From: Pseudorhodoferax aquiterrae
Lineage (GTDB): Bacteria > Pseudomonadota > Gammaproteobacteria > Burkholderiales > Burkholderiaceae_C
Direction: 5' to 3'
Assembly: GCF_014652235.1 (NCBI RefSeq)
Contig: NZ_BMYK01000007.1
Span: 1-64,000, forward strand
Length of the DNA stretch: 64,000 bases
The notes beneath the pieces are model-generated. The model saw only the letters and a list, made by a program, of their open reading frames with translations, made no database searches and was not told the origin of the DNA. Each line of letters opens with the position of its first letter. Within the stretch, counting starts at the first letter, position 1. The translations under genes were made by a program, and so were the position numbers. This document shows, piece after piece, positions 45,327 through 49,435 of the stretch.

Positions 45327-46542
45327 CAGAAGAGACATTGCCCACGCGCGCCGCCCCCGTCGTGCCATCGCCCTCCATGGGCAGCTTCCTGCGCCACAAC
45401 GTCCGTGAATACGGCATGTTGCTGAGCCTGGTGGCCATCATGGTGTTCTTCCAGGTCGTGACGGACGGCACGCTGATGCAGCCGCTCAACCTGACCAACC
45501 TGGTGCTGCAGAACAGCTACATCGTGATCATGGCGCTGGGCATGCTGCTCGTGATCGTGGCCGGCCACATCGATTTGTCGGTGGGCTCGGTCTGCGGCTT
45601 CGTCGGCGCGCTGGCCGCGGTGCTCATGGTGCAGCACGACTGGCCCGTGCTGCCGGCCACGCTGGCCTGCCTGGCCTGCGGCGCCGCGATCGGCGCGGCG
45701 CAGGGCTGGTTCGTGGCGTATGCGCGGATTCCGTCCTTCATCGTCACGCTGGCCGGCATGCTGGTGTTCAAGGGCCTGGCGCTGGCGGTGCTGGCCGGGC
45801 AGTCGGTGGGGCCGTTTCCGGAGGTGTTCCAGGGCCTGAGCAGCGGCTTCATCCCCGACCCGCTCGCCGCGCCGCCCACGCCGGGCCAGCAGAGCCTGCG
45901 CCTGTTCACGCTGCTGCTGGGCATGGGTGCTGCGCTGCTGTTCGCGTGGACCGGCTGGCGTGCACGCCAGCGCCAGCGCGCGCACGGCATCACGAGCGAG
46001 CCTGCGGGCTTCTTCGTGGCGAAGACACTGGTGTTCGCCGCGATCCTGATCGGCTTCGCGTGGCTGCTGGCCTCGTACCGCGGCCTGCCCAACGTGCTGG
46101 TGGTGATGGCGCTGTTGATCCTGCTGTTCGATTTCGTCACGCGGCGCAGCACCATCGGCCGGCGCATCTATGCGCTGGGCGGCAACGAGAAGGCCGCGCG
46201 GCTGTCGGGCATCGACACGCGGCGCCTGTCGTTCCTGACCTTCGTGAACATGGGCGTGCTGGCCGCGCTGGCCGGGCTGGTGTTCGCAGCGCGGCTCAAC
46301 ACCGCCACGCCCAAGGCCGGGCTGGGCTTCGAGCTCGACGTGATCGCGGCCTGCTTCATCGGCGGCGCCTCGGCCTCGGGCGGCGTCGGCAAGGTCATGG
46401 GCGCGGTGATCGGCGCGTTCATCATGGGCGTGATGAACAACGGCATGTCCATCCTGGGCATCGGCATCGACTACCAGCAGGTCATCAAGGGGCTGGTGCT
46501 GCTGGCAGCGGTGTTCATCGACGTTTACCACAAGAACAAGGC

Positions 46543-46546
<4 letters not shown>
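45323..46546 (+). CDS. gguB: sugar ABC transporter permease (GguB type)
   Basis: The 407-residue inner-membrane protein has about ten membrane helices and the CUT2 signatures [39 protein letters not shown] and [19 protein letters not shown]. The length of about 400 with a large central loop matches GguB/XylH rather than the shorter RbsC. Its start overlaps gguA (ATGA) and its stop overlaps the next ATPase gene (ATGA), so two importers are translationally chained. Confidence 0.94.
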
Positions 46547-48057
<1,511 letters not shown>

Positions 48058-48098
48058 CCGACCCTTTTTGCGAGCGCTTGGGGGTGGACCGCGCCGAC

Positions 48099-48204
48099 GG
48101 TGTACTCCACTCCGCGAATGTCCCCCGGCCTTGCCCGCCTTGCCGGCCTGGGGCCGGCAAGGCGGGCAAGTCCTCCTCCTTGATTTCGCTGCGTGGAGCA
48201 CACC
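48099..48204 (-). ncRNA. structured element, unit 1 (candidate RNA motif)
   Basis: Outer arms GGTGTACTCCAC/GTGGAGCACACC enclose, on the plus strand, CCGCGAATGTCCCCCG (48112-48127), an 18-base-pair hairpin with a 3-base loop (48131-48169) and CTCCTCCTTGATTTCGCTGC (48173-48192). The single outer mismatch becomes a G-U pair only on the minus strand, which suggests that strand is the RNA. There the element reads GCAGCGAAATCAAGGAGGAG before the hairpin and CGGGGGACATTCGCGG after it. The same strands occur in unit 2 with different stems. Confidence 0.5.
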
Positions 48205-48223
48205 ATCGTCGTGGTCTGGCAGC

Positions 48224-48253
48224 GTCGCGTCGCACGCCGCCGCACGACGCGAC
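48224..48253. repeat. hairpin between the two structured units
   Basis: GTCGCGTCG and its exact complement enclose 12 bases. It lies midway between units 1 and 2. Together with them it fills most of the 340 bases between ytfR and ytfT; the outer parts, 48058-48098 and 48363-48397, hold nothing I recognise. Confidence 0.6.
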
Positions 48254-48267
48254 GTGCCCCGGGTCGA

Positions 48268-48362
48268 GGGTACTGGGTGGCCCCTGCAGCGAAATCAAGG
48301 AGGAGCCTGGGCCGCCTGCGGCCCTGGCGGGGGACATTCGCGGAAGGGGCCACCCGGTGCCC
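48268..48362 (+). ncRNA. structured element, unit 2 (candidate RNA motif)
   Basis: This is an inverted second copy with the same architecture. The outer arms are 18 bases (48268-48285 and 48345-48362; two non-Watson-Crick positions, both G-U on the plus strand), then GCAGCGAAATCAAGGAGGAG (48286-48305), a hairpin GGGCCGC-CT-GCGGCCC (48309-48324), and CGGGGGACATTCGCGG (48328-48343). The conserved strands are identical to unit 1, while both stems differ in sequence and length but remain paired. GCGAA and TTCGC in the conserved strands can also pair with each other. Confidence 0.5.
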
Positions 48363-48397
48363 TCGGCCCGCGCACCACACCTGCGCAGGGCCCGCAC

Positions 48398-49435
48398 ATG
48401 AGCGCGCCCTCCGCAATCTCAAACCGCTGGATGCAGCACCGCCTGCTCTGGCCCCTGGTGACGCTGGCCATCCTGCTCGCCGTCAACGCCGCCTTCAACC
48501 CCGGCTTCCTGCGCATCGAATGGCGCGAGGGCCACCTCTACGGCAGCCTGATCGACATCCTGAACCGCGCGGCGCCGCTGATCCTGGTCTCGCTGGGCAT
48601 GACACTGGTGATCGCCACGCGCGGCATCGACATCTCGGTGGGCGCCGTGGTGGCCATCAGCGCAGCCGTGGCAGCGTGGACCATCGGCGGCAACGTGGAC
48701 GGCACGGCGCGCTTCGGCCTGCCGCTGGCCATCGTGGCCGCGCTGGGCGTGGCGCTGGTCTGTGGGTTGTGGAACGGCGTGCTCGTGGCCGGTGTGGGCA
48801 TGCAGCCCATCATCGCCACGCTGATCCTGATGGTGGCCGGCCGCGGCATCGCGCAACTCATCACCGACGGGCAGATCCTCACGGTCTACCACAAGCCCTT
48901 CTTCTTCCTGGGCGGCGGCTACCTGCTGGGCCTGCCGTTCTCGGTGTTCGTGGTGGCTGCGGTGTTCGGCGCGCTGTACCTGGCGGCCACGCGCACCGCA
49001 CTGGGCCTGTTCATGCAGTCGGTCGGCATCAATCCAACGGCCGCGCGCGTGGCAGGCGTGCAGACGCGGCGGCTGGTGCTGGGCACCTACGCGGTCTGCG
49101 GCCTGTGCGCAGGGCTGGCCGGGCTGCTCATCAGCTCCAACATCAAGAGCGCCGATGCCAACAACGCCGGCCAATTGCTGGAACTGGACGCCATCCTGGC
49201 CGTGACGCTGGGCGGCACGCTGCTGACGGGCGGGCGCTTCAGCCTGGTGGGCAGCGTGATCGGCGCCCTGATCATCCAGACGCTGACCTACGCCATCTAC
49301 TCGCTGGGCGTGCCGCCCGAGATCAACCTCGTGGTCAAGGCCGTCGTGGTGTTCGCCGTGATGCTGCTGCAATCGGCCGAGTTCCGCACCACGCTGCGCG
49401 TGCTGGCCGTGCGGCCCGCGGGAGGCCTGCGATGA
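48398..49435 (+). CDS. ytfT: sugar ABC transporter permease (YtfT type)
   Basis: The 345-residue CUT2 permease has about nine membrane helices and TRGIDISVGAVVAISAAVAAWTIG, MQPIIATLILMVAGRGIAQLITDGQ and SVGINPTAARVAGVQTRR, as in YtfT. The ribosome-binding site is poor (CAGGG at 9 bases). It starts 35 bases after structured unit 2, so its expression may depend on that element. Its stop overlaps yjfF by four bases. Confidence 0.92.
   Translation: MSAPSAISNRWMQHRLLWPLVTLAILLAVNAAFNPGFLRIEWREGHLYGSLIDILNRAAPLILVSLGMTLVIATRGIDISVGAVVAISAAVAAWTIGGNVDGTARFGLPLAIVAALGVALVCGLWNGVLVAGVGMQPIIATLILMVAGRGIAQLITDGQILTVYHKPFFFLGGGYLLGLPFSVFVVAAVFGALYLAATRTALGLFMQSVGINPTAARVAGVQTRRLVLGTYAVCGLCAGLAGLLISSNIKSADANNAGQLLELDAILAVTLGGTLLTGGRFSLVGSVIGALIIQTLTYAIYSLGVPPEINLVVKAVVVFAVMLLQSAEFRTTLRVLAVRPAGGLR

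What the first reader, a model, noticed from the sequence alone, without database searches (positions are those of the whole stretch)
48099..48362. Two inverted copies of a structured element with identical loop strands and covarying stems between ytfR and ytfT
Units 48099-48204 and 48268-48362 share one architecture: outer stem, 20-base strand GCAGCGAAATCAAGGAGGAG, 3-base linker, inner hairpin, 3-base linker, 16-base strand CGGGGGACATTCGCGG, one A, outer stem. The two single strands are identical in both copies. The outer stems (12 against 18 bp) and inner stems (18 against 7 bp) differ completely yet pair. All non-Watson-Crick positions in the outer stems are G-U pairs on one strand, the one carrying AAGGAGG. 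Conserved loops with covarying helices are the signature of a structured RNA (or a hairpin DNA recognised by a protein). I do not recognise the motif. The AAGGAGG core looks like a Shine-Dalgarno sequence, so ribosome binding or its masking is possible.
Basis: partly seen in the sequence, partly recalled or inferred. Interest (0 to 1): 0.8.

Follow-up and report, generated by a model that had tools for sequence, protein, structure and literature searches.

The report
Paired hairpin repeat between operon genes
The stretch is one copy of a scattered, probably mobile DNA repeat made of two outward-facing hairpins with a shared, unusually structured core; it sits between genes in many relatives of this bacterium, and in some genera inside operons in one fixed direction.

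Summary
The two units are one copy of a dispersed element found in 6 of 6 genomes of the genus (88 units), in at least 183 of 399 family genomes and, outside the family, in 11 genomes of two other families. Each unit is a roughly 26-bp outer stem, a conserved purine-rich core and a variable inner hairpin; 28 of 35 pairs show compensatory change. Outer stems hold 761 G·U against 45 A·C cells, so each unit is selected as a fold of its own purine strand, whichever way it is transcribed. Close pairs point outward (73 of 73). In this genus 31 of 31 typed pair sequences (15 sites) lie between co-directional genes in one orientation; Variovorax genomes nearly agree, one other genome (G109) shows no rule. 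A frame open through the element may explain the direction (moderate support). No Rfam family reaches its threshold. Closest published: REP/BIME repeats and the Betaproteobacterial repeat element BRE, whose sequence I could not see. Best reading: a BIME-like mobile hairpin pair tolerated as an intercistronic spacer. Its mobilising enzyme, and any RNA role, are unproven.

The parts
48083..48218 (-). Unit A (upstream module, antisense to ytfR/ytfT): whole model match; outer stem, core, 19-bp inner hairpin
   Evidence: cmsearch 85.4 bits, E 1.1e-14; fold z -11.2; typed as the upstream type
48173..48192 (-). Unit A conserved core strand 1 (GCAGCGAAATCAAGGAGGAG)
   Evidence: conserved columns
48112..48127 (-). 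Unit A conserved core strand 2 (CGGGGGACATTCGCGG)
   Evidence: conserved columns
48219..48259 (.). 41-base spacer between the two outward units; holds a 10-bp inverted repeat 48223-48232/48245-48254
   Evidence: spacers of 40-45 bases in 43 of 73 pairs elsewhere
48260..48372 (+). Unit B (downstream module, sense to ytfT): whole model match; outer stem 48260-48285 with 48345-48370
   Evidence: cmsearch 100.1 bits, E 6.4e-18; fold z -7.0
48286..48305 (+). Unit B conserved core strand 1
48305..48328 (+). Unit B inner hairpin (variable in length and sequence among relatives)
48328..48343 (+). Unit B conserved core strand 2
48054..48401 (+). Frame open through the whole element: ATG overlaps the ytfR stop (ATGA), its stop overlaps the ytfT start (ATGA); 115 codons; translation not shown
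   Evidence: sequence; the frame is part of ORF 46830-48401
46550..48057 (+). ytfR-like sugar ABC transporter ATPase, upstream gene (start approximate)
   Evidence: two ABC_tran stretches in the frame 46000-48054
48398..49435 (+). ytfT-like permease, downstream gene
   Evidence: BPD_transp_2, E 2.2e-41

Best explanation
One copy of a dispersed, BIME-like element of Comamonadaceae and some relatives. Two hairpin modules, types A and B, point outward around a short spacer. Each module is selected as a fold of its own purine strand (shown by G-U against A-C counts and compensatory change). The inferred reason is that this strand is recognised by a protein, most likely the unknown enzyme that copies or moves the element through single-stranded DNA; independence from transcript strand fits that better than an mRNA role. 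Copies sit mostly in tandem or convergent gene gaps, often shortly after a stop codon. In this genus and in the Variovorax genomes read, copies between co-directional genes lie with A upstream and B downstream (shown). Proposed reason: in that direction a reading frame tends to stay open through the element, so ribosomes can cross and the next cistron stays coupled (inferred, moderate support).
For: Covariation in 28 of 35 pairs, score 0.676 against 0.204 in shuffles. G-U 761 against A-C 45; type A alone 190 against 9, type B 200 against 8. 73 of 73 close pairs outward. Many copies per genome, 7 to 80 in ten genomes, alike within a genome. Site without the element in G001, where ytfR and ytfT overlap as TGATG; same site filled in G000, G002, G003, G005. 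Patchy presence outside the family. Orientation 31 of 31 pair sequences at 15 sites in the genus. Frame open A to B in 15 of 15 sites and 19 of 20 Variovorax tandem pairs, against 13 of 15 and 11 of 20 B to A and 66% and 60% in shuffles. The rule-less genome G109 is rarely open in either direction (3 and 4 of 15); G174, with a bias, is open 4 of 6 against 1 of 6.
Against: No mobilising enzyme found: the REP-type transposase is in 374 of 399 family genomes, and no unit lies within about 1.5 kb of seven such genes. No target duplication shown. G109 shows no orientation rule. Flipping the element in silico keeps a bridging frame in 19 of 25 instead of 22 of 25, and 9 instead of 11 of 14. Inner-hairpin lengths in Variovorax change in steps of 2, not 3. 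Convergent against tandem difference is small (4 of 7 against 19 of 20, p 0.04; stop counts p 0.09). Copies are related, so counts are not independent. No expression data.
Confidence: 0.5

Rival explanations
1. A structured RNA family: each unit is transcribed from its own purine strand and acts as an RNA, the pair being two divergent RNA genes or RNA leaders.
For: Strand-specific covariation with G-U pairs, tandem G-A and a swapping purine pair fit a folded RNA. Both units of a pair point outward, as divergent transcripts would. The BRE repeat of Bordetella lies in a region giving small RNAs (PMC3110155, section read).
Against: No sigma-70-like promoter or intrinsic terminator in 47900-48600 (other promoter types not covered). 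Copy number varies widely between related genomes. No Rfam match. No RNA data.
Confidence: 0.2
2. REP/REPIN system moved by the family's single-copy RAYT transposase.
For: Paired inverted hairpins; intergenic; a RAYT-like protein in 374 of 399 family genomes, 77.4 bits to NCBIfam REP_Tyr_transpos, just below its cut-off of 80.
Against: No unit near seven RAYT genes. 6 of the 20 listed RAYT-less genomes still hold units. Units of about 95-135 bases with a 26-bp stem and internal core are unlike 20-40 base REPs. No GTAG/CGTC tag was sought systematically.
Confidence: 0.2
3. A binding site for a host protein (chromosome structure or mRNA decay), as proposed for REP/BIME in enterobacteria, kept for that use.
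For: Conserved at the same site in four species of the genus; gene-end position.
Against: Absent from 216 of 399 family genomes at the sensitivity used; the strand bias is not expected for a duplex site.
Confidence: 0.15
4. A cis-regulatory leader of the downstream gene (riboswitch or Shine-Dalgarno masking).
For: Unit B is sense and ends 26 bases before the ytfT start.
Against: Found at unrelated operons and at convergent gene ends; the A unit is antisense.
Confidence: 0.05

Closest known systems
REP / BIME / REPIN repeats with RAYT (tyrosine transposase)
   Same: Dispersed, intergenic, inverted pairs of hairpins recognised as folds; avoid divergent gaps; a RAYT-like gene is present in most of these genomes.
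   Different: Units are about 95-135 bases with a long outer stem and a conserved internal core; copy number 7-80 in ten genomes, not hundreds; not seen beside RAYT; orientation follows transcription in some genera. REP features are recalled, partly from abstracts.
Betaproteobacterial repeat element BRE (Hot et al. 2011, PMC3110155)
   Same: Dispersed GC-rich repeat, mostly intergenic, in Comamonadaceae genera that also carry this element (Rhodoferax, Polaromonas, Acidovorax); suggested mobility (section read).
   Different: BRE is 75-91 bp, often in direct tandem arrays, described from Bordetella; here pairs are inverted. Sequence is only in a figure or supplement that I could not see, so identity is open.
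MIRU of mycobacteria (recalled)
   Same: Insert between coupled cistrons, orientation matched to transcription, frame bridging stop and start.
   Different: Direct-repeat units without paired hairpins; here the frame is not conserved across genera.
Integron attC sites (recalled)
   Same: Recombination site recognised as a folded strand, variable stems, near stop codons.
   Different: Conserved part here is internal, not terminal boxes; no integrase array seen.

Membership tests
REP/REPIN with RAYT | Dispersed inverted hairpin pairs in intergenic DNA | tested here: met
REP/REPIN with RAYT | Copies flank the RAYT gene | tested here: not met
   no unit at E up to 1 in stretches around seven distinct RAYT genes, about 1.1-1.7 kb each side
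REP/REPIN with RAYT | RAYT gene in the genome | tested here: inconclusive
   374 of 399 family genomes have it, with or without units; 6 of 20 listed genomes without it hold units
REP/REPIN with RAYT | Short palindrome with a GTAG or CGTC tag | not tested
   length differs (units 93-137 bases); tags not sought
BRE (PMC3110155) | Sequence similarity to the Bordetella repeat | not testable with these tools
BRE (PMC3110155) | Direct tandem arrays with few bases between repeats | tested here: not met
   73 of 73 close pairs are inverted; one locus, L222, has two direct units about 400 bases apart
Rfam structured RNA | Match at a family's gathering score | tested here: not met
   0 matches in the window; only sub-threshold matches at 48040-48420
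MIRU-like coupled insert | Frame overlapping upstream stop and downstream start | tested here: inconclusive
   met in the window; bridging in 22 of 25 genus and 11 of 14 Variovorax cases, but 19 and 9 after flipping
Intrinsic terminator | Hairpin followed by a T run | tested here: not met
   0 found at 47900-48600
IS200/IS605-type or other transposon end | Copies enclosing a transposase gene | tested here: inconclusive
   three longer outward intervals read by eye hold no transposase I recognised (L164, L160; L289); no IS library

The most novel reading that the evidence does not exclude
A new class of bacterial mobile element: two end modules, each recognised as a folded single strand through a non-canonical purine core (A.G to G.A swap, a helix that switches between Watson-Crick and tandem G.A), spreading through operons in the one direction in which ribosomes can read across it, so that insertion separates cistrons without breaking translational coupling.
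Probability: 0.25. Interest if true: 0.8.

Novelty: new variant of a known kind. Interest (0 to 1): 0.6.

Why it matters
Dispersed inverted hairpin repeats are usually explained as REP-type elements moved by RAYT. Here the conserved part is an internal, non-canonically paired core, and in whole genera the direction of the copies follows transcription. If confirmed, it offers a test of how a nucleic-acid fold is recognised by an unknown enzyme and of how inserts inside operons are tolerated. The covariance model also gives a way to annotate a common, unlabelled feature of Comamonadaceae genomes.

Tried and rejected
Rfam, phage records (none), plasmids (3 Variovorax megaplasmids, no genes listed there) and viral contigs (1 contig) gave no identity. 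Literature: and six core strings (0 papers). Promoter or terminator: none. A conserved hairpin in the spacer: weak, mean z -0.52 over 64 spacers. PF01797 missing from G140, G380 and G245 looked like evidence against RAYT but was misleading: a protein search found a homologue in all three. Transposase inside longer outward intervals: none recognised by eye. A universally conserved peptide: rejected, frames and lengths are not conserved in Variovorax.

Orientation counts dropped or weakened: singles in tandem gaps looked neutral (sense 8, antisense 9). Split by type by eye the Variovorax singles followed the rule, with L164 (Xylophilus) an exception. In other genera my by-eye typing gave about 14 tandem pairs with A upstream and 4-5 with B upstream, several untypable. 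My first gene caller made false 'divergent' calls, the window among them (3 of 28, 4 of 32), so one search is preferred. In one search two-type clustering failed in G178 (0 of 4 pairs with two types) and G322 (1 of 3), which I do not count; G140 (5 of 5 units in fixed orientation, p 0.1) could not be matched to A or B. The diverged sixth pair of the window's genome (L292) escaped the pattern. The Variovorax tandem list includes L159 and L206, which one search had called divergent and I judged tandem; 2 of its 22 and 1 of the 8 convergent loci were not matched by the script.

Full report
What is there. Between ytfR (ends 48057) and ytfT (starts 48398) lie two inverted units with identical core strands. 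Both fold better than shuffles. The outer stem is 26 pairs in unit B and 22 pairs with two interruptions in unit A, and GCGAA pairs with TTCGC inside the supposedly single strands. The flanking genes are an ABC ATPase and a permease on the same strand.

Family. The core pattern gives five inverted pairs 113-114 bases apart in the window's genome; a sixth, diverged pair appears with a covariance model. In an alignment of 37 units 28 of 35 pairs have changes on both sides, 91.2% of cells pair against 66.6% in shuffles, and the covariation score is 0.676 against 0.204. Model R1 finds 88 units in 6 of 6 genomes of the genus. It finds at least one unit in 183 of 399 family genomes and 81 of 141 genera (strict filters, nine candidates per genome, so a lower bound). 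Of 399 order genomes 18 have a match, 7 in the family and 11 in two other families (9 in one genus of f13, 2 in f21). Ten genomes searched more fully hold 7 to 80 units. Two contigs of Pseudorhodoferax sp. Leaf265 have the same lengths as contigs of the same-genus genome G002, so the window is probably Pseudorhodoferax; by the same sign G258 is a Variovorax (inference).

Anatomy. In 341 distinct units, collected with a pattern that fixes parts of the core, the helix next to the core reads GCGAA/TTCGC (198 with A behind it), GCGAAG/TGAGC with a tandem G·A (91), GCGGC/GCCGC (36), and rarer forms. In 150 units found by the model without that pattern, columns 34/100 read A-T 133, G-C 10, C-G 6; columns 31/103 read C-G 140, T-A 8; the purine pair 42/94 reads A·G 128, G·A 18, A·A 4. 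Outer stems hold 761 G·U and 45 A·C cells; type A alone 190 and 9, type B 200 and 8. So the purine strand is the selected strand in both types.

Arrangement. In 119 loci I kept 201 units: 73 close pairs, all outward, spacer 40-45 bases in 43, and 55 single units. A crude gene caller put 106 elements in tandem 51, convergent 28, divergent 6 and unclear 21 contexts, against 194, 55 and 67 for all gaps of 60 bases or more in the same loci, element gaps included. Distances to the nearest gene end were often 20-60 bases. Pairs usually join two different types: 31 of 31 in Pseudorhodoferax, 10 of 10 in G258, 16 of 17 in G109. In Pseudorhodoferax 31 of 31 distinct pair sequences, from the loci fetched, lie between co-directional genes with type A antisense and upstream, type B sense and downstream. 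They fall into 15 sites. Pfam supports the direction of flanking genes at eight loci tested, including the window (one protein was in a wrong frame and was replaced). With independent typing and gene calls, counting units in tandem gaps (the two units of a pair are not independent): G258 15 of 16 (20 loci of 80 units read), G388 9 of 9, G174 12 of 14. G109 shows no rule: A 8 antisense and 6 sense, B 8 sense and 7 antisense.

Mobility and age. In G258 the copies printed are alike including outer stems, and in many of them the likeness ends near CGCCCTGAAC. Species G001 has ytfR and ytfT overlapping as TGATG without the element; G000, G002, G003 and G005 have it at this place; the listed rows show no full ytfR-ytfT match in G004. 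G000 and G005 carry solo remnants in which the outer halves of A and B are joined, at sites where other species have the pair.

Why one direction. In the window a frame starts at an ATG overlapping the ytfR stop, crosses both units and ends at a stop overlapping the ytfT start. At least one frame is open A to B at 15 of 15 Pseudorhodoferax sites and in 19 of 20 Variovorax tandem pairs; B to A in 13 of 15 and 11 of 20; shuffles give 66% and 60%. Convergent Variovorax copies are open A to B in 4 of 7 (Fisher p 0.04; stop counts p 0.09). G174 is open in 4 of 6 against 1 of 6, and G109, without the rule, in 3 and 4 of 15. Against this, flipping the element in place keeps a bridging frame in 19 instead of 22 of 25 Pseudorhodoferax and 9 instead of 11 of 14 Variovorax cases, and the copies are related. 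Read-through is therefore a moderate inference.

What moves it. A REP-type tyrosine transposase homologue is present in 374 of 399 family genomes, too common to correlate with units; the one of the window's genome scores 77.4 bits against a cut-off of 80 for NCBIfam REP_Tyr_transpos. Six of the 20 listed genomes without it hold units. No unit was found around seven such genes. No other candidate was found.

Known things. No Rfam family reaches its threshold. No paper in the library holds the core strings, and the searches listed no description of it other than, possibly, BRE. Of PMC3110155 I saw passages, the outline and the whole section on BRE. In PMC3733652, PMC12306157, PMC2817692 and PMC2267715 I only searched for taxon names. 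MIRU, attC and most REP features are recalled. BRE may or may not be the same family: its arrays are direct, these pairs inverted, and I could not tell whether Bordetella was among the order genomes searched.

Verdict. The finding is confirmed and widened: a BIME-like, probably mobile paired hairpin element, new in its anatomy and in its direction relative to transcription. Its enzyme and any RNA function are unproven.

Noticed in passing
L291:1137-1826 (G000:C3): A REP-type tyrosine transposase homologue is nearly universal in the family: 374 of 399 genomes, mostly one match each.
   Followed up: partly
L293:1400-1600 and L294:1400-1560: Solo remnants: outer half of unit A joined to outer half of unit B, at sites where other species of the genus have the pair.
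   Followed up: partly
L249-L268 (G109): A third core version, GCGGC/GCCGC, dominates in one genome, and some copies (e.g. L256, L268) are followed by short direct duplications of the unit's outer end.
   Followed up: no
G071, G457 and seven more genomes of f13; G581, G640 of f21: The element is present in two families outside the window's own, in f13 only in one genus, which suggests horizontal transfer.
   Followed up: no
L226:5465-5574: One unit lies at the end of a contig that is filed as viral in IMG/VR.
   Followed up: no
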